Assembly (NCBI RefSeq): GCF_017355855.1
Contig: NZ_JAFEWD010000018.1
Coordinates: 1-49,803 of the forward strand
Length of the DNA stretch: 49,803 nt
Direction of reading: 5' to 3'
From: Pedobacter sp. SYSU D00535
GTDB taxonomy: Bacteria; Bacteroidota; Bacteroidia; Sphingobacteriales; Sphingobacteriaceae
In this document: positions 31,666 to 49,803 of the stretch, piece after piece
How positions within the stretch are numbered: the stretch's first letter is position 1
Layout of the letters: every line of letters begins with the position of its first letter
Translations under genes and position numbers: made by a program
The notes under the pieces: generated by a model
What the model saw: only the letters and a program-made list of their open reading frames with translations
The model's database searches: none
Told to the model about the DNA's origin: nothing

Positions 31666-32958
31666 CTAAACCAGGTATTCAAAAAGCGTTTGATCTTTAT
31701 TAATTTCTTTGTAATCGAAATTATGCGCTTCCATTCGTTGAATCAACGCAGCATAATCTTCCGGCGACTTCAATTCGATCCCCACAAAGGCCGGCCCAAA
31801 TTCCCGGTTCGTCTTTTTAATGAACTCAAATCGGGTAATATCATCATCGGGACCTAAAACCCTGTTGACAAAGGTTTTTAAAGCACCGGGGCGCTGAGGA
31901 AAGTTAACTACAAAGTAATGCTTCAGTCCTTCGTACAGCAAAGAGAGTTCTTTAATCTCCTGCATACGCTCAATGTCATTATTTCCCCCGCTGACTACAC
32001 AAACTACCTTCTTACCTTTAATCCGATAGGCATAATAATCGAGGGCGGCAATAGACAATGCTCCCGCCGGCTCGGCTACAATGGCATCCTGATTATAGAG
32101 TCGCAGGATTGTGGCGCAGACTTTCCCTTCGGGAATAAGAGTAATATCGCTTAATACCTCTTTACAGATCGGGTAGGTGAGCTCTCCGGCTCTCCGCACA
32201 GAGGCTCCGTCGACAAAGCGGTTGATATGATCCAACGTTACCGGTCCATCCGCTTCAAAAGCTTTCTTCATCGAAGGAGCGCCTTCTGGTTCCACTCCAA
32301 AGATCTCGATGGCGGGATTCGCCTGCTTCATATAACTTCCCGCTCCGGCAGCCAGTCCGCCGCCGCCTAGTGGGACAATCACCACCTCCGTCTCGGGAAG
32401 ATCGGTCAATATTTCTACGCCCACTGTCCCTTGTCCCTCAATGATCTTGTAGTTGTCAAAAGGAGGGATGAAGGTCAATTCATTCGCAGTGGTATAAGCA
32501 AGTGCTTCCCGAAGACAGTCATCAAAGGTATCACCAACCAGGATAATATCGATCATCCCATCCCCGAACATCTTCGTCTGGTTGATTTTCTGCTTCGGCG
32601 TGATCTCCGGCATGAAAATAACCCCTCTGGTATTGAGTTTTCTGCAAGAAAAGGCAACACCCTGCGCATGGTTGCCAGCACTCGCACAGACCACCCCTTT
32701 CAAGAGCTGTTCAGTACTTAGCTGACTGATCATGTTGTAAGCCCCTCTAAGCTTGTAGGAACGCACCACCTGTAAATCTTCCCGCTTTAGATAGACCTCG
32801 CAGTCGTACTTCTCCGACAGCCATTGGTTATGTTGCAAAGGCGTTTTTTTGATTACCTTTTTAAGTCGCGCTAAAGCGCTTATATAATTTAATTCTGATT
32901 TGTAGTTGCTCATATAGGGAGCTGGGTTGTATTCTATCGGAGAGGTGAAAGAACTCAT
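31666..32958 (-). CDS. ilvA: Threonine ammonia-lyase (threonine deaminase)
   Basis: Makes 2-oxobutyrate from threonine for isoleucine synthesis. PLP lysine in VVRSYKLRGAYN, the phosphate loop VPLGGGGLAAG, and a single C-terminal ACT-like domain (HYFVVNFPQRPGALKTF to the end) of the short IlvA type, which can carry Ile feedback control. 430 residues from the ATG at 32958, which overlaps the hepT stop (ATGA); an ATG at 32913 would give a more usual start. The gene lies behind the MNT-HEPN pair with its own promoter region, not directly behind leuB. Confidence 0.94.
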   Translation of the reverse strand: MSSFTSPIEYNPAPYMSNYKSELNYISALARLKKVIKKTPLQHNQWLSEKYDCEVYLKREDLQVVRSYKLRGAYNMISQLSTEQLLKGVVCASAGNHAQGVAFSCRKLNTRGVIFMPEITPKQKINQTKMFGDGMIDIILVGDTFDDCLREALAYTTANELTFIPPFDNYKIIEGQGTVGVEILTDLPETEVVIVPLGGGGLAAGAGSYMKQANPAIEIFGVEPEGAPSMKKAFEADGPVTLDHINRFVDGASVRRAGELTYPICKEVLSDITLIPEGKVCATILRLYNQDAIVAEPAGALSIAALDYYAYRIKGKKVVCVVSGGNNDIERMQEIKELSLLYEGLKHYFVVNFPQRPGALKTFVNRVLGPDDDITRFEFIKKTNREFGPAFVGIELKSPEDYAALIQRMEAHNFDYKEINKDQTLFEYLV

Positions 32959-33308
32959 TCCTCCATTTGTCTCAGTATCTGCTGTATTTGTTCTTTAAGC
33001 GCTGGTAATTCCTGCCTGACAATATTCCACACAATCTCGTAATCAATGCCAAAGTACTCGTGGGTAATAATGTTCCTAGTTCCTTTTATTTGTCTCCAAG
33101 CCACTTCCTTGTTAAGGCTCTTTGTCTCGGCGCTTAAGTTTGCAGTAGCTTCTCCTATGATAACTATTTGCATTAAAGTAGCGCTCTTGACTAAAGAGTT
33201 GCTAAGGAACTCGTCCCGCGTCAAATTTGTCAAGTAAAGTTCGATGTCAAGGATGGCATCAATTATGTGCAGTAGCCGCACACGATCGCTCAGCTTATTA
33301 TTTCTCAT
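32955..33308 (-). CDS. hepT: HepT-like HEPN toxin (DUF86)
   Basis: 117 residues, all-helical. It carries the HEPN RNase motif R-x4-H-x-Y as RNIITHEY (Arg78, His83, Tyr85). In the characterised MntA/HepT system the antitoxin adenylylates this tyrosine and blocks the RNase. Start at the ATG 33308, overlapping mntA by 11 bp; a longer frame to 33377 reads back through mntA. Its stop overlaps the ilvA start by 4 bp, so the toxin is translationally coupled to ilvA. Confidence 0.85.
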   Translation of the reverse strand: MRNNKLSDRVRLLHIIDAILDIELYLTNLTRDEFLSNSLVKSATLMQIVIIGEATANLSAETKSLNKEVAWRQIKGTRNIITHEYFGIDYEIVWNIVRQELPALKEQIQQILRQMEE

Positions 33309-33591
33309 AAATAAGCTTTTTCTCCTGGTCGATAAGAGGCGAGATATACTTAGATAGCCCTCCCGTAGATACGACATCGACTTTTTTATTTAAAACTTTT
33401 TCCAGTTCCTCTTTCATGCCGTAGAAGTTCCAGCTTACGCCTTTCGAATAGTCTAGCTCCACCAAAATGTCCACATCACTACTTTCGTCGGCGTCTCCTC
33501 TCGAATAAGAACCAAATAAAAAGGCTTTCCGTACAGGTTTTGTACTGAAGAACTGTCTGATTAAATTCAAATCGTTCGCACCGAGGGTCAT
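33298..33591 (-). CDS. mntA: MntA-like minimal nucleotidyltransferase antitoxin
   Basis: 97 residues with the nucleotidyltransferase signature GSYSRGDADESSDVDILVE (Gly27, Ser28, Asp39, Asp41). It would transfer AMP to the HepT tyrosine. Start at the ATG 33591, preferred over a longer frame to 33705 that crosses the leuB terminator, because the -7 box TATTTTTG ends just 5 nt upstream. Overlaps hepT by 11 bp, the normal antitoxin-toxin order for this family. Confidence 0.85.
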   Translation of the reverse strand: MTLGANDLNLIRQFFSTKPVRKAFLFGSYSRGDADESSDVDILVELDYSKGVSWNFYGMKEELEKVLNKKVDVVSTGGLSKYISPLIDQEKKLIYEK

Positions 33592-33596
33592 AGCTG

Positions 33597-33604
33597 CAAA
33601 AATA
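33597..33604 (-). promoter_or_regulatory. -7 promoter box of mntA-hepT-ilvA
   Basis: CAAAAATA on the plus strand reads TATTTTTG, a perfect TAnnTTTG. The predicted transcription start falls on or next to the A of the mntA ATG, so the mRNA may be leaderless. It is located downstream of the leuB terminator. Confidence 0.6.
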
Positions 33605-33683
33605 AGAATATGTATTGAAAGAGTGATAGCCCGCCGGATAACAGTGAAAGTTGGGCAAGGTTCTTTGTAAGAAACAGATACCC

Positions 33684-33717
33684 GAATAAAAAACCCCATT
33701 ACCATTCGGTAACAGGG
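33684..33717 (-). terminator. Terminator after leuB
   Basis: On the minus strand CCCTGTTACC and GGTAATGGGG pair over 10 bp (two G-U pairs) around a GAAT loop and are followed by TTTTTTATT. It lies 27 bp after the leuB stop and separates leuB from the toxin-antitoxin block. Confidence 0.85.
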
Positions 33718-34989: not shown

Positions 34990-35025
34990 AAAAAAACGCA
35001 GACAGCGTTCGAAACGCTGTCTGCG
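34990..35025 (-). terminator. Terminator after the second IPMS-type gene
   Basis: CGCAGACAGCGTT and AACGCTGTCTGCG form a perfect 13-bp stem with a CGA loop, and on the minus strand it is followed by seven T. It lies 7 bp after the synthase stop and should separate it from leuB. Confidence 0.92.
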
Positions 35026-35032
35026 CCATCTC

Positions 35033-38986: not shown

Positions 38987-40498
38987 CTACACAAACTTAT
39001 TCAGCGCATCCAGGTACGCATTGGCCGAAGCCCTTACGATATCGGTACTGAACCCGTAGCCCATGTACGATTTATCTTCAAACATCACCCGCATATCCAC
39101 CTTGCTCACATCGTCGCTACCCCCGTGGATCGAATGAATATTGAATTCCTTAATTTCGATATCTTTCTTCAGAATACTGAGGATCGCATTGATAGTTGCG
39201 CTCACCGGACCGTTACCTTTTGCCTTCGCCGTATAATCTTCGCCATTGTAGTGAAGACTGATCTCTGCTTCCGGTTGCTCCTGATCTCCGGTTGTCACTT
39301 TGATAGAGTTGATGCTGATGCCGTTTTTGTAATTCGTTTCGTCAGCACCCATCAATTTCAAAAGATCGTCATCCTTTACCTCTTTTTTCTCGTCTGCCAG
39401 CTCCAGGAACTTCTGATAGGTGTGGTCGAGGTCGATCTTTTCAATGGTATATCCCAAACGCTCCAGGTGGTGCTTCAATGCGGCCCGACCGCTACGAGCT
39501 GTTAATACGATATCCGCTGAATCAATACCTACATCCTCCGGGTTGATGATCTCGTAGTTCTCCCGGTGTTTCAGGAATCCATCCTGGTGAATACCGGAGC
39601 TATGAGCAAATGCATTTTTACCTACAATCGCTTTATTTGGTTGAACAGGCATGCGCATCATCCGGCTCACCATTCCGCTCAAGTTGTAGATATGTTTGGT
39701 GTTGATGTTGATCATCTCATGATAACCCAAACCTTTGTGCGTATTCAGGATCATCACCACTTCTTCCAGCGACGTATTTCCCGCACGTTCCCCGATTCCG
39801 TTGATGGTACACTCTACCTGGCGGGCACCGTTTTGAAGACCGGCAATGCTGTTGGCAGTAGCTAAGCCTAAGTCGTTATGACAGTGAACAGAGATCACCG
39901 CCTGGTCGATATTTTTCACGTTCTCTTTCAGGAACTTGATTTTCTCCCCGTATTGCTCCGGTAGGCAGTAGCCATTTGTATCCGGGATATTTACTACCGT
40001 TGCACCTGCCGCAATCACCGCCTCGATCATTTGCGCTAAGAAAACATTGTCAGCACGACCTGCATCCTCAGCGTAGAACTCGATGTCCTCCACAAAAGAC
40101 TTCGCATACTTTACCGCTTCTACGGCACGCTCAAGAATCTTTTCGCGGGTACTGTTAAACTTGTATTGGATGTGCATGTCGGATGAACCGATTCCCGTAT
40201 GGATACGCGGGCGTTTTGCATGCTTTAGCGCTTCTGCTGCACAATCGATATCTCCTTTATTTGCACGCGTTAAGGCACAAATAATTGGCTCACGAATAGC
40301 CTTGGATAATTCAACCACACTTTGAAAATCGCCGGGACTAGAGATGGGGAATCCAGCTTCAATGATGTCTACTCCCAGTTTTTCCAGTGCCTCAGCAATG
40401 ATGATCTTTTCAGGAGTTGTTAATTGAGAACCAGGTACCTGCTCGCCGTCACGCAGCGTAGTATCAAAAATATAAATACGGTTTGGATCGTGTAACAT
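38987..40498 (-). CDS. leuA: 2-Isopropylmalate synthase
   Basis: 503 residues: [16 protein letters not shown], metal-binding [32 protein letters not shown] and a C-terminal regulatory (LeuA_dimer) domain ending in the region [14 protein letters not shown]. Condenses 2-oxoisovalerate with acetyl-CoA as the first leucine step; normally inhibited by leucine through the C-terminal domain. Matches the long, regulated LeuA type. It stands upstream of leuC in the transcription order. Confidence 0.93.
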
Positions 40499-46491: not shown

Positions 46492-48198
46492 CTACAAATC
46501 CGTTACGCAACCTTCTGCTGCGGTGCTTACTTGCTTTGCATATTTATAAAGTAATCCTTTTTTCGCCTTTAGCTCCGGCTGTGTCCAGTTTGCTTTCCGA
46601 CGTGCGATCTCTTCATCAGAGACTTTCAGTGTCATTACGCGACTGACTGCGTCAATCTCGATGATGTCGTCATCTTCTACCAGTCCGATCAAACCGCCCA
46701 GGTAAGCTTCCGGAGTTACGTGGCCCACTACAAAGCCATGCGTTCCACCGCTGAAACGGCCATCGGTGATCAGGGCTACGCTTTTGCCTAAGCCCGCTCC
46801 GATAAGTGCCGAGGTAGGTTTCAACATCTCAGGCATTCCCGGAGCTCCTTTCGGACCTACGTTACGGATGACGATCACATCACCATGTTTGACGTGGCCT
46901 GAAGAAATTCCTGCAATCAGCTGCGTTTCACCGTCAAATACGCGGGCCGGTCCTTCAAAACGCTCTCCTTCTTTACCCGTGATCTTCGCCACGCTACCAC
47001 CTTCTGCCAGATTTCCGTAGATGATCTGTAAGTGTCCTGTTGCTTTGATAGGGTTTTCGGCTGGTAGAATGATCTTCTGGTTTTCAAATTCCAGTTCAGG
47101 AACTTCCGCAAGGTTTTCCGCAAGCGTTTTTCCGGTACAGGTCAGGCAATCACCATGCAGCCATCCCTGAGAAAGGGCATATTTCATGACTGCAGGTACG
47201 CCGCCGATCTTGTGCAAGTCTTCCATCATGTATTTGCCACTTGGCTTCATGTCTGCAAGAACCGGTATCCGGTTGCTGACAGCCTGAACGTCGTCCTGAC
47301 TTAGCTCCACATCCACGCTTCTGGCCATTGCCAGTAGGTGTAATACGGCGTTGGTAGAGCCACCCAGGATCATGATCGTCACAATCGCGTTTTCAAACGC
47401 TTCGCGGGTCATGATATCTTTCGGTTTGATATCGCGCTCCATCAACACGCGGATTGCTTTTCCTGCATCCAGACATTCCTGTTGTTTTTCAGGACTAAGA
47501 GCAGGGTTTGATGAAGAGTAAGGTAAACTCATTCCTAAAGCCTCGATAGCAGCCGCCATGGTATTAGCGGTGTAGATACCTCCACAGGCTCCGGCACTCG
47601 GGCAAGAGTTTTTAATGATCTCTTTAAAGTCGATCTCATCTAATTGTCCCGCTATCTTTTTGCCCAGCGCTTCAAACGCTGAAACGATGTTCAGATCTTC
47701 ACCTTTATAATGTCCCGGTGCAATGGTTCCGCCATAAACCATGATCGAAGGGCGGTTTAATCTTCCCATCGCGATCAGACATCCGGGCATGTTTTTATCA
47801 CAGCCAGGAAGAGCGATTAGCGAATCGTAGTATTGAGCTCCGCAGACGGCTTCAATAGAGTCAGCGATCACGTCGCGGCTAACCAGCGAGTAGCGCATAC
47901 CCTCAGTACCGTTGCTCATTCCATCACTCACCCCAATGGTGTTAAAGATCAGACCCACCAGGTCTTCTTTCCAGACTCCCTCTTTTACCAGTTTCGCCAG
48001 GTCGTTCAGGTGCATGTTACAGGTATTTCCATCATATCCCATACTAGCAATGCCGACCTGCGCTTTTTTCATATCTTCCTCAGTCAATCCAATTCCATAA
48101 AGCATCGCTTGTGCAGCGGGCTGGGTCGGATCCTGAGTCAGCGTTTTACTGTACTTGTTGATTTCGGTAGTTTCTGTTTTTTCAGAAGATAAGGCCAT
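46492..48198 (-). CDS. ilvD: Dihydroxy-acid dehydratase
   Basis: 568 residues. Iron-sulfur and substrate motifs: [64 protein letters not shown]. Dehydrates dihydroxy acids to the 2-oxo acids of Val and Ile. First structural gene of the ilv/leu locus, directly after the attenuator leader. Confidence 0.96.
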
Positions 48199-48228: not shown

Positions 48229-48261
48229 TAAAAAAAAACGCCCTCTTTCTCAGAAGGCGTT
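48229..48261 (-). terminator. ilv attenuator terminator
   Basis: On the minus strand AACGCCTTCT and AGAGGGCGTT pair over 10 bp (one G-U) around GAGAA and are followed by seven more T. Lies 31 bp before the ilvD ATG and 14 nt after the leader-peptide stop. Its left arm (48253-48260) can instead pair with 48281-48288, so terminator and antiterminator exclude each other. Confidence 0.9.
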
Positions 48262-48288
48262 CTATACTATTTCCATTAATACGCCTTC
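48253..48288 (-). promoter_or_regulatory. ilv antiterminator
   Basis: GAAGGCGT (48288-48281, the end of the leader-peptide frame) is perfectly complementary to ACGCCTTC (48260-48253), which is the left arm of the terminator. Formation is expected when a ribosome stalls at the Val/Leu codons just upstream. Confidence 0.8.
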
Positions 48289-48383
48289 GACATACAGTTA
48301 AGCAGGAGCACGACCAGCACCCGATTACCGATGCTAATTCGTCCGTTTTGACTGCTGTTAGTTACTGTGCTGTCGTTACGCAT
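48276..48383 (-). CDS. ilv operon leader peptide (35 aa)
   Basis: A short frame from ATG 48383 to TAA 48276, 35 codons: N-terminal polar part MRNDSTVTNSSQNG, then ISI at 16-18 and VLVVLLL at 22-28, then NCMSKAY. Ten of 35 residues are Val, Leu or Ile, seven in a row. The frame ends on the 5' arm of an antiterminator stem. The role would be to sense charged tRNA(Val/Leu/Ile): stalling at the run leaves the antiterminator free to form. Supported by position (between a candidate promoter and ilvD) and by the two exclusive hairpins. Translation itself is not shown. Confidence 0.85.
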   Translation of the reverse strand: MRNDSTVTNSSQNGRISIGNRVLVVLLLNCMSKAY

Positions 48384-48405
48384 TTCTTGTTTGTTTCAGT
48401 ATGTT

Positions 48406-48435
48406 CAAGGTAGGAACTAGAGTTTTTTGAAGCAA
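48406..48435 (-). promoter_or_regulatory. Candidate promoter of the ilv operon
   Basis: On the minus strand TTG (48435-48433), a 20-bp gap and TACCTTG (48412-48406) resemble the -33/-7 elements of Bacteroidota, with one T fewer in the -7. Start of transcription would be near 48400, about 17 nt before the leader-peptide ATG. No better candidate was seen. Confidence 0.4.
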
Positions 48436-48439
48436 TAGG

Positions 48440-48783
48440 GCTAGTGATTTTTTTTGAATTAGTATTTTATTTTGTTTTTTCTAATTTTTAGAAATATGAT
48501 TCTTCTTAGCCTTAATTTGAAAGAATATAAGTACATGTCCTAATACCAAAACCACTTTTGGTATACGGTATGACGAGCGGGCGGGGAAGCAAAAATTTCC
48601 TGAATTCTTCCTGAAATGAGGTAATTCATAAAATTTCTTGAATTTCCCGATAAAAAAATAGCAGGTTCTGATTTACCTATAAACGCAGGTCTGGTTAATT
48701 TATCGCTCCGCTACTTTTTCAGCCTGCTGAAATTAGTTGAGCATCTCTTGCGCTGGCGGACTAGATAGTTCAAGGGATCTGAA
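48440..48783. other. Non-coding AT-rich stretch with small palindromes
   Basis: No credible gene. A perfect 9-bp hairpin ATACCAAAA CCAC TTTTGGTAT lies at 48543-48564. Degenerate REP-like sequence (GCTGAAATTAGTTGAGCATC) lies near 48726, and TAGATAGTTCAAGGGATC (48762-48779) matches part of the spacer between the 122-bp repeats further right. Confidence 0.5.
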
Positions 48784-48784
48784 A

Positions 48785-48886
48785 CGAAGTTCCTATCGTA
48801 GGTTCTGAGAACCGGCAGTAAAATTGCAACGTTAGCTGGATTGTAAATCCAGAGATACGGCTTCGAGATTGCAAATCTCGAAGAGC
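48785..48886 (+). repeat. 122-bp multi-hairpin repeat, copy 1 (5'-truncated)
   Basis: Corresponds to about the last 102 bp of the 122-bp unit; the first hairpin is missing and the left end is joined to a piece of the inter-repeat spacer. Contains GGTTC TGA GAACC, CTGGATT GTA AATCCAG and CTTCGAGAT...ATCTCGAAG hairpins and ends CGAAGAGC. Confidence 0.85.
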
Positions 48887-48931
48887 GGGGAGACACCGAA
48901 TTAATTTATCATTTGCTGCCCCGCCCATGAT

Positions 48932-48948
48932 CGTAGCGTCCCGCTACG
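48932..48948. repeat. Small hairpin CGTAGCG/CGCTACG
   Basis: A perfect 7-bp palindrome with a TCC loop between repeat copies 1 and 2. GC-rich and isolated in the spacer; another REP-type hairpin. Confidence 0.5.
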
Positions 48949-48983
48949 ACCTTATAGATCTCGCCTAGATCAGTATTGCGACT

Positions 48984-49105
48984 GCTCTTCGGAATTTGTG
49001 ATTCCGAAGTTCCTATCGTAGGTTCTGAGAACCGGCAGGAAGTTGCAACGCTAGCTGGATTGTAAATCCAGAGATACGGCTTCGAGATTGCAAATCTCGA
49101 AGAGC
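48984..49105 (+). repeat. 122-bp multi-hairpin repeat, copy 2
   Basis: Full unit, starting GCTCTTCG and ending CGAAGAGC, which are exact reverse complements. Four internal hairpins: TTCGGAAT/ATTCCGAA, GGTTC/GAACC, CTGGATT/AATCCAG, CTTCGAGAT/ATCTCGAAG. Non-coding; reading frames through it only reproduce the repeat. Confidence 0.9.
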
Positions 49106-49142
49106 AGGATCTCTTGAGTTTGAAAAATAGATAGTTCAAGGG

Positions 49143-49163
49143 ATCCTGAAACCAGTTCAGGAT
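49143..49163. repeat. REP-like hairpin ATCCTGAA/TTCAGGAT
   Basis: A perfect 8-bp stem with a 5-nt loop in the 138-bp spacer (49106-49243). The same hairpin recurs at 49688-49708 because the whole spacer is duplicated. A variant with G-C changed to C-G occurs at 49453-49473. Confidence 0.65.
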
Positions 49164-49243
49164 GACGATGAAAGGAGAGGTAGGCGAAGATGAGCAACTT
49201 CAGCTTACGGTCTTGGGTGAAAACAGTTGAAAAAGCACCAGGA

Positions 49244-49365
49244 GCTCTTCGGAATTTGCAATTCCGAAGTTCCTATCGTAGGTTCTGAGAACCGGCAGGA
49301 AGTTGCAACGCTAGCTGGATTGTAAATCCAGAAATACGGCTTCGAGATTGCAAATCTCGAAGAGC
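49244..49365 (+). repeat. 122-bp multi-hairpin repeat, copy 3
   Basis: Full unit with few changes from copy 2 (loop TGC instead of TGTG-type in the first hairpin, GAAATACGG for GAGATACGG). Followed by a diverged form of the spacer (GAGGTAGGCGAAGATGAG...). Confidence 0.9.
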
Positions 49366-49452
49366 GTGTAGAGGTAGGCGAAGATGAGTAATTTCAGCTT
49401 GCGGTCTTTGATGGAAACAGTTGAAAGAGCACTAGCGCTACTTCAGATCGTC

Positions 49453-49473
49453 ATGCTGAATTTAGTTCAGCAT
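49453..49473. repeat. REP-like hairpin ATGCTGAA/TTCAGCAT
   Basis: Perfect 8-bp stem, 5-nt loop, followed by CTCTTGAGG. Compared with 49143-49163 one base pair is swapped on both arms, so pairing is kept. Confidence 0.6.
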
Positions 49474-49528
49474 CTCTTGAGGAATAAAAAAACGAGATGG
49501 CAGTGCAAAGGTCAACGGAAAACCAACT

Positions 49529-49650
49529 GCTCTTCGGAATTTGTAATTCCGAAGTTCCTATCGTAGGTTCTGAGAACCGGCAGGAAGTTGCAACGCTAGC
49601 TGGATTGTAAATCCAGAGATACGGCTTCGAGATTGCAAATATCGAAGAGC
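49529..49650 (+). repeat. 122-bp multi-hairpin repeat, copy 4
   Basis: Differs from copy 2 at two positions only (one in the first loop, one that breaks a pair in the last stem). Followed by a 138-bp spacer identical to 49106-49243. Confidence 0.9.
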
Positions 49651-49788
49651 AGGATCTCTTGAGTTTGAAAAATAGATAGTTCAAGGGATCCTGAAACCAG
49701 TTCAGGATGACGATGAAAGGAGAGGTAGGCGAAGATGAGCAACTTCAGCTTACGGTCTTGGGTGAAAACAGTTGAAAAAGCACCAGGA

Positions 49789-49803
49789 GCTCTTCGGAAT
49801 TTG
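49789..49803 (+). repeat. 122-bp repeat, copy 5 (cut by window end)
   Basis: GCTCTTCGGAATTTG is the beginning of another unit, so the array continues past the window. Confidence 0.85.

What the first reader, a model, noticed from the sequence alone, without database searches (positions are those of the whole stretch)
48229..48435. Complete branched-chain leader-peptide attenuator in front of ilvD
Seen: a 35-codon frame with VLVVLLL and ISI, a perfect 8-bp antiterminator (48288-48281 with 48260-48253), and a 10-bp terminator sharing the same arm with a T run, all within 200 bp between a candidate promoter and ilvD. Known: this is how enteric ilv, leu and his operons sense charged tRNA. Inferred: one element could set expression of the whole ilv/leu locus in response to Val, Leu and Ile. 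The frame is too short for normal gene calling, so it is probably unannotated.
Basis: partly seen in the sequence, partly recalled or inferred. Interest (0 to 1): 0.75.

Follow-up and report, generated by a model that had tools for sequence, protein, structure and literature searches.

The report
Leader-peptide attenuator before ilvD operon
A short gene rich in valine and leucine codons sits before a branched-chain amino-acid operon of a Bacteroidota bacterium and very likely senses amino-acid shortage through a stalled ribosome that keeps an RNA terminator from forming; the kind of switch is well known, but few examples seem to be described in this phylum.

Summary
In detail: 35-codon leader (48383-48276, minus strand) with VLVVLLL, perfect 8-bp antiterminator (48288-48281 with 48260-48253), terminator (48263-48235) with nine Ts, and a promoter-like motif. 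Both held congeners keep a 35-codon leader, an I/L/V run, an SK(A/V) end that encodes antiterminator arm 2, and the terminator, at 42-56% nucleotide identity. A scan found 63 such units in 58 of 131 loci, each followed by ilvD or ilvE (19 further sites without a following ORF were dropped). Arm 2 starts a median 14 nt after the first base of the last I/L/V codon; 47 of 55 scored units lie in 10-17 nt, permutation mean 38%, matching a stalled ribosome's footprint. Corrections: a classical protector segment is not established; a strong terminator after the cimA-like gene makes control of leuB and ilvA doubtful; Ile codons lie outside the main run; the nearest large genus keeps the promoter motif but mostly lacks the unit (1 of 28). 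The genus also has trp and thr leader-terminator units and a His leader without terminator. New member of a known kind; no expression data.

The parts
48433..48435 (-). -33-like element TTG of the putative Bacteroidota promoter
   Evidence: motif in 41 of 45 chosen family loci before ilvD vs 105 of 900 shuffles; coordinates
48406..48412 (-). -7-like element TACCTTG; start of transcription inferred near 48401
   Evidence: start site is inference
48276..48383 (-). leader ORF, 35 codons, MRNDSTVTNSSQNGRISIGNRVLVVLLLNCMSKAY
   Evidence: leaders of the same length in both congeners
48330..48338 (-). Ile-Ser-Ile codons, possible secondary regulatory codons
48300..48320 (-). regulatory run GTG CTG GTC GTG CTC CTG CTT (VLVVLLL)
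   Evidence: last codon starts 14 nt before arm 2
48364..48384 (-). candidate segment 1 (protector): AATGCGT, CGACA, ACAGT pair with 48298-48278 in the minimum-energy fold
   Evidence: (z -2.8 here; -1.7 and -0.4 in congeners): weak
48281..48288 (-). antiterminator arm 2, GAAGGCGT, inside the last codons (SKAY) of the leader
48253..48260 (-). arm 3, ACGCCTTC, shared by antiterminator and terminator
48235..48263 (-). intrinsic terminator hairpin (arms 3 and 4)
48230..48238 (-). terminator T run (nine T)
46492..48198 (-). ilvD, first structural gene
   Evidence: NCBIfam TIGR00110
44660..46396 (-). ilvB, acetolactate synthase large subunit (start chosen at an internal ATG)
   Evidence: TIGR00118
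43984..44595 (-). ilvN, acetolactate synthase small subunit
   Evidence: TIGR00119
42236..43717 (-). ilvC
   Evidence: NF003557
40595..42061 (-). ABC ATP-binding protein (ModF-like, below the ModF cut-off)
38987..40498 (-). leuA
   Evidence: TIGR00973
37429..38847 (-). leuC
   Evidence: TIGR00170
36658..37254 (-). leuD
   Evidence: TIGR00171
35033..36550 (-). cimA-like (citramalate synthase-like; below that model's cut-off)
   Evidence: NF042433, 693 bits vs cut-off 950
34995..35027 (-). strong intrinsic terminator after the cimA-like gene: probable end of the attenuated transcript

Best explanation
The element is a ribosome-mediated transcription attenuator. RNA polymerase starts near 48401 and a ribosome translates the 35-codon leader close behind it. 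If Val-tRNA or Leu-tRNA (less directly Ile-tRNA) is short, the ribosome stalls in the VLVVLLL run. Its front edge then ends just before arm 2 (the SKA codons), so arm 2 pairs with arm 3 and the terminator cannot form; polymerase goes on into ilvD-ilvB-ilvN-ilvC-(ABC)-leuA-leuC-leuD-cimA. If charged tRNA is plentiful, the ribosome runs to the stop codon, covers arm 2, arm 3 pairs with arm 4, and transcription ends near 48230. Shown by sequence and comparison: the frame, the competing hairpins, the spacing, the conservation of the layout and the link to ilv genes. Inferred: the start site, translation, coupling of ribosome and polymerase, and the response to amino acids.
For: Anatomy at the stated places. 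Both held congeners have the same layout, leader length, 14-nt spacing and SK(A/V) arm, at 42-56% nucleotide identity in the leader. 63 units of this design in 58 of 131 loci, 16 before ilvD and 47 before ilvE-type ORFs; 19 more candidate sites were dropped because no ORF of 150 aa or more began within 260 nt. Detection within 450 nt before ilvD: 21 of 170 loci, against 3 of 850 dinucleotide shuffles and 1 of 170 reverse complements. Last I/L/V codon to arm 2: median 14 nt, 47 of 55 in 10-17 nt, permutation mean 38%, none of 5000 reaching the observed share; after dereplication 11 of 17 vs 35%, p 0.0036. This fits a ribosome that covers about 12 nt past the codon (PMC4833913, Background section read). 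Leader tail pairs better with its own terminator arm than with the mean of the others' in 59 of 63; dereplicated sets of 16-20 units: 16.8 vs 12.9, worst p 0.001. All three held genomes of the genus also have trp-type and thr-type leader-terminator units.
Against: No expression, ribosome or 3'-end data. Substitutions by codon position in six close leader pairs (12, 10, 21) and 15 synonymous vs 21 non-synonymous codon changes give only weak support for a translated frame. In the large genus g14 the promoter motif is found in 28 of 28 loci but the unit in 1 of 28. The dereplicated spacing set passes on the share within 10-17 nt but not on the interquartile range (p 0.18). Window arm 2 against shuffles of its own tail is moderate (24 of 5000). 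Only 29 of 63 units exceed the 95th percentile of shuffled tails. Several units look doubtful to me (L024, L008, L014, L126).
Confidence: 0.88

Rival explanations
1. Three-segment variant: a leader attenuator without a true protector, so that an untranslated leader gives read-through instead of super-termination. (A sub-form of the best explanation, so the two odds overlap.)
For: Arm 2 lies in the last leader codons. The best upstream partner of arm 2 is scattered over units and is no better near the start codon than in mid-leader (p 0.87, 62 units); the region before the terminator has z below -2 in only 20 of 63.
Against: Pairing near the start codon is better than with shuffled start regions (p 0.013). 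In the window the region before arm 3 folds better than chance (z -2.8) with arm 2 paired to the leader start. In a number of Chitinophagaceae leaders a CU-rich stretch just before ATG can pair with the GGAGG arm. All six E. coli control leaders show z -2.0 to -4.4 in the same test.
Confidence: 0.35
2. The frame is a real small membrane protein and the terminator belongs to its own gene.
For: I/L/V runs are hydrophobic; frames with such runs recur in relatives.
Against: The richest 10-residue windows are 540 of 630 I/L/V with only 23 A, F, G, M or W (units were chosen for I/L/V, so this is partly circular), unlike ordinary membrane helices (recalled). N-termini vary; arm 2 pairs with arm 3; each of the 63 units precedes ilvD or ilvE.
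Confidence: 0.04
3. T-box, riboswitch or protein-bound leader that senses amino acids without translation.
For: Terminator upstream of a biosynthetic operon.
Against: No Rfam family at gathering score in the window region or 12 relatives; only sub-threshold matches. A published T-box survey lists none in 7 Bacteroidetes/Chlorobi genomes (PMC2494555, passages seen). The codon run and spacing stay unexplained.
Confidence: 0.03
4. Chance frame beside an ordinary terminator of an upstream transcript.
For: Some terminators sit between any two genes.
Against: No same-strand ORF of 80 codons or more within 710 nt upstream of ilvD; shuffles 0 of 3000; same layout in relatives.
Confidence: 0.02

Closest known systems
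E. coli ilvL (ilvGMEDA), leuL and thrL attenuators
   Same: Short leader rich in the codons of the operon's products, terminator with T run before the first gene (E. coli regions fetched and folded).
   Different: I made no direct sequence comparison; the leader peptides look unalike. Here arm 2 lies in the last leader codons and the protector segment is not clear. The promoter-like motif is of the Bacteroidota kind.
ilvB-II, ilvB-OMG and ilvB motifs (uORF attenuators or candidates in Corynebacterium, other lineages and Leptospira; PMC10272879, abstract and passages seen)
   Same: BCAA-rich upstream ORF before an ilv gene.
   Different: Other lineages, before ilvB; no Rfam family matched here.
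Leader-peptide candidates of Flavobacterium psychrophilum (PMC9723704, section on 5' cis-regulatory RNAs read)
   Same: Same phylum; [quoted passage not shown]
   Different: The word 'ilv' does not occur in its main text; different family; its supplementary tables were not seen.
Bacteroid-trp motif, RF01692 (PMC2864571, table row seen)
   Same: Bacteroidetes element listed as cis-regulatory; its name suggests trp genes.
   Different: No Rfam match to the ilv or trp leaders here; its mechanism was not read.

Membership tests
Ribosome-mediated leader-peptide transcription attenuator | Short ORF rich in codons for the operon's end products | tested here: met
   VLVVLLL before an ilv/leu operon
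Ribosome-mediated leader-peptide transcription attenuator | Intrinsic terminator between leader and first gene | tested here: met
Ribosome-mediated leader-peptide transcription attenuator | Mutually exclusive antiterminator sharing an arm with the terminator | tested here: met
Ribosome-mediated leader-peptide transcription attenuator | Arm 2 free when the ribosome is at the regulatory codons, covered when at the stop | tested here: met
   14 nt in the window; 47 of 55 in 10-17 nt; geometry only
Ribosome-mediated leader-peptide transcription attenuator | Segment 1 (protector) overlapping the regulatory codons | tested here: inconclusive
Ribosome-mediated leader-peptide transcription attenuator | Conserved in relatives before the same pathway | tested here: met
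   both congeners; 58 of 131 loci, before ilvD or ilvE; but only 1 of 28 g14 loci
Ribosome-mediated leader-peptide transcription attenuator | Termination responds to charged tRNA and needs leader translation | not testable with these tools
   needs experiments
Known Rfam leader families (enteric and other) | Match at gathering score | tested here: not met
   whole window, 12 relatives; only matches far below gathering score
T-box | Rfam T-box match | tested here: not met

The most novel reading that the evidence does not exclude
Bacteroidota carry an old, phylum-wide set of branched-chain leader attenuators built as a compact three-segment ruler: the last leader codons are themselves the antiterminator arm, set one ribosome footprint past the last regulatory codon, with no obligatory protector, so an untranslated leader reads through. 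This would mean ribosomes follow RNA polymerase closely in a phylum that starts translation largely without Shine-Dalgarno pairing (recalled).
Probability: 0.35. Interest if true: 0.62.

Novelty: new member of a known kind. Interest (0 to 1): 0.45.

Why it matters
It predicts how this operon is controlled and points to a short gene that gene callers would probably miss. More widely, translation-dependent attenuators across a phylum would be evidence that transcription and translation are coupled there, which can be tested directly with these leaders as reporters. The tight spacing of run and arm offers a simple search rule for further leaders.

Tried and rejected
Orientation error: I treated genome-search loci as if the match were always on the plus strand; 13 loci were read backwards. 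Corrected from then on, and one search counts are not used. L113 was sliced inside the gene because its flank is cut by the contig end (seen, confirmed), so it counts as a miss without having been tested. In one search the cut loci L206 and L217 were mis-sliced; one search repeats the count correctly.

False positives of the scan: the 3' end of a gene that looks like atpC (recalled by its residues, not searched) plus its terminator, in loci such as L012, L017, L032 and L132. Of 82 candidate sites, 63 were kept and 19 dropped by rule (no ORF of 150 aa or more starting within 260 nt); many of the 19 look like these gene ends. L019 and L132 (probably such gene ends) and L024 (which looks like an ordinary small protein) are among the 21 of 170; L024 also stayed in the 63 units. 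The 63 units are distinct in sequence. The loci were fetched by ilvD, so the scan saw few other genes, and one search kept the best 80 of 589 relatives.

Universal protector segment: tested and not supported as a general feature. Covariation inside the Chitinophagaceae class was uninformative because the arms hardly vary; the evidence for pairing comes from comparing classes. Codon-position test: weak. Rfam at gathering score: nothing. Sigma-70 promoter scan: nothing. L202-L204 were fetched and not analysed.

Literature: ten searches; only the top 20 of 54, 12 of 381 and 12 of 169 papers were listed. Two comparative papers that may list Bacteroidetes cases (Lopatovskaya 2010, Vitreschak 2004) were seen only as reference entries, so I make no claim that nothing is in print.

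Full report
OBSERVATION. The leader ORF runs 48383-48276 on the minus strand. The run GTG CTG GTC GTG CTC CTG CTT occupies 48320-48300; the nearest Ile codons start at 48338 and 48332. Arm 2 (48288-48281) and arm 3 (48260-48253) are perfect 8-bp complements. The terminator hairpin folds at -16.7 kcal/mol (z -5.3) and the antiterminator hairpin at -10.4 (z -4.2). Of 3000 dinucleotide shuffles of the 262-nt region none held both a comparable run and a comparable terminator.

PROMOTER. TTG-N20-TACCTTG lies at 48435-48406. A pattern written after seeing these sequences is found before ilvD in 41 of 45 chosen loci of the family (three of the genus, and those of genera near it or with ilvD at the operon head), against 105 of 900 shuffled sequences. 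Of the four misses, L002 has the motif outside the distance limit (visible) and L113 was sliced wrongly. The start of transcription near 48401 is inferred, which gives a terminated leader RNA of about 170 nt.

OPERON. NCBIfam names ilvD, ilvB, ilvN, ilvC, an ABC ATP-binding protein, leuA, leuC, leuD, a cimA-like gene (below that model's cut-off) and leuB, then ilvA, all on the minus strand. Pfam puts a nucleotidyltransferase and a HepT-like pair between leuB and ilvA. No intrinsic terminator was seen in the 8 gaps from ilvD to the cimA-like gene; a strong one follows it (35027-34995) and another follows leuB. So one element probably controls ilvD to the cimA-like gene, not the whole locus.

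CONGENERS. Only two other genomes of the genus are held, and both have the unit before ilvD: MAQRFDHILSIKIINVLILVNVVIVLLGEVQSKVL and MNPRLRRRLSITVTSLVPVINVIVVLLIASHSKVS, each 35 codons, each with a strong terminator. Leader nucleotide identity between pairs is 42-56%, and 60-67% in the last 45 nt. The terminal SK(A/V) codons carry the antiterminator arm: GAAGGCGT, GTCGAAGGTGTT and GAAGGTGT pair with ACGCCTTC, AGCGCCTTCGAC and GCGCCTTC.

WIDER SURVEY. Within 450 nt before ilvD a leader-plus-terminator unit was detected in 21 of 170 loci (three of these, L019, L024 and L132, look false to me), against 3 of 850 shuffles, 1 of 170 reverse complements and 18 of 1468 other windows. Some of those other windows hold units before ilvE, others gene ends. 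In many relatives ilvE lies before ilvD. Searching further upstream gave 63 units in 58 of 131 loci, 16 followed by ilvD and 47 by the ORF family identified as ilvE; 19 of 82 candidate sites were dropped because no long ORF followed. Several classes of leader tail were seen: SK(A/V) in the window genus, GGG-type tails in Chitinophagaceae, GAMxx-type tails in Chryseolinea and other Cyclobacteriaceae-type loci, KAL in Pedobacter, and others. In most of them the tail codons match the local terminator arm.

SPACING. For the 55 of 63 units with a helix score of 14 or more (8 dropped), arm 2 begins a median of 14 nt after the first base of the last I/L/V codon, and 47 of 55 lie within 10-17 nt. Shuffling arm positions among loci gives 38% on average and 58% at most in 5000 trials. 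With one unit per leader type, 11 of 17 lie in that range against 35% (p 0.0036), though the interquartile range is then not significant (p 0.18). A ribosome is said to cover about 12 nt past the translated codon (PMC4833913, Background section), so a ribosome stalled on the last regulatory codon just leaves arm 2 free, and one at the stop codon covers it. The three units of the window genus all have exactly 14 nt.

PAIRING. Leader tails pair better with their own terminator arm than with the mean of the others in 59 of 63 units (means 17.6 vs 13.4; not corrected for kinship). In dereplicated sets of 16-20 units the means are 16.8 vs 12.9, worst p 0.001. Against shuffled tails only 29 of 63 pass the 95th percentile. 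The terminator is more stable than the antiterminator in 53 of 63.

SEGMENT 1. In the window the RNA before arm 3 folds with z -2.8, arm 2 pairing with the first codons of the leader; congeners give -1.7 and -0.4. Over 63 units the median z is -1.3, and 20 are below -2. Six E. coli leaders give -2.0 to -4.4 in the same test. The position of the best upstream partner varies; the start region is better than its shuffles (p 0.013) but not better than mid-leader (p 0.87). I leave the protector open.

NOT A MEMBRANE PEPTIDE. The richest 10-residue windows are 540 of 630 Ile, Val or Leu, with 23 other hydrophobic residues (A, F, G, M, W). The units were chosen for I/L/V, so this is partly circular, but so few other hydrophobic residues fit a codon signal better than a usual membrane helix (recalled).

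ABSENCE. In genus g14, which I take for Mucilaginibacter by inference from ilvD similarity, the promoter motif is present in 28 of 28 loci examined, but the unit was detected in 1 of 28. The attenuator was therefore probably gained or lost between a fixed promoter and ilvD.

SAME GENOME, OTHER OPERONS. All three held genomes of the genus have a WWW leader with terminator before a chorismate-binding (trpE-type) gene and a Thr/Ile-rich leader with terminator before a thrA-type gene. A His-rich leader precedes hisG in all three without an intrinsic terminator at the threshold used.

KNOWN OR NEW. Leader-peptide attenuation is textbook. For Bacteroidota I saw one transcriptome paper that reports strong clues for it before amino-acid operons in Flavobacterium psychrophilum (PMC9723704, one section read), one that mentions leader-like short ORFs in Bacteroides thetaiotaomicron (PMC7366714, passages), and a 2010 survey that knew leader peptides only in Proteobacteria and Actinobacteria before adding Firmicutes (PMC2965389, passages). 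No paper on a Bacteroidota ilv leader appeared in the listings of ten searches of the held library (three of them cut). The window element is a new member of a known kind.

Noticed in passing
L178-L180 (own genus) and L205-L232, before hisG: His-rich leaders before hisG: in family f1, 22 of 23 loci have one and 0 of 22 have an intrinsic terminator scoring 20 or more; 12 of 22 carry a conserved ATGTTTCTACG(C/T)G stretch that can form a GTTTC-TACGT-GAAAC hairpin (some others, such as GTTTTG-TACTT-CAAAAC, keep a pairing there by eye). Outside the family, 7 of 8 loci have a His leader and 7 of 7 a terminator (correcting). How the f1 form works is unexplained.
   Followed up: partly
L184-L186 before a trpE-type gene; L199-L201 before a thrA-type gene: trp leaders (WWWQ...CAG) and thr leaders (Thr/Ile-rich, GGAGGAAG-type arm by eye) with strong terminators in all three held genomes of the genus.
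   Followed up: partly
L070, L072, L073, L074 (Chryseobacterium), about 1.1-1.2 kb before ilvD: Two leader-plus-terminator units in tandem before ilvE, with different leader sequences.
   Followed up: no
L116: Two units in one operon, one before ilvE and one before ilvD.
   Followed up: no
L199:682-766 (minus strand): Flavo-1 RNA (RF01705) match upstream of the thrA-type leader.
   Followed up: no
window 32955-33705: HepT-like and nucleotidyltransferase genes (toxin-antitoxin type pair, by Pfam) lodged between leuB and ilvA.
   Followed up: no
window 48711-49803: Repeated intergenic sequence: the same 26-codon frame is read at 49013, 49273 and 49558 on the minus strand.
   Followed up: no
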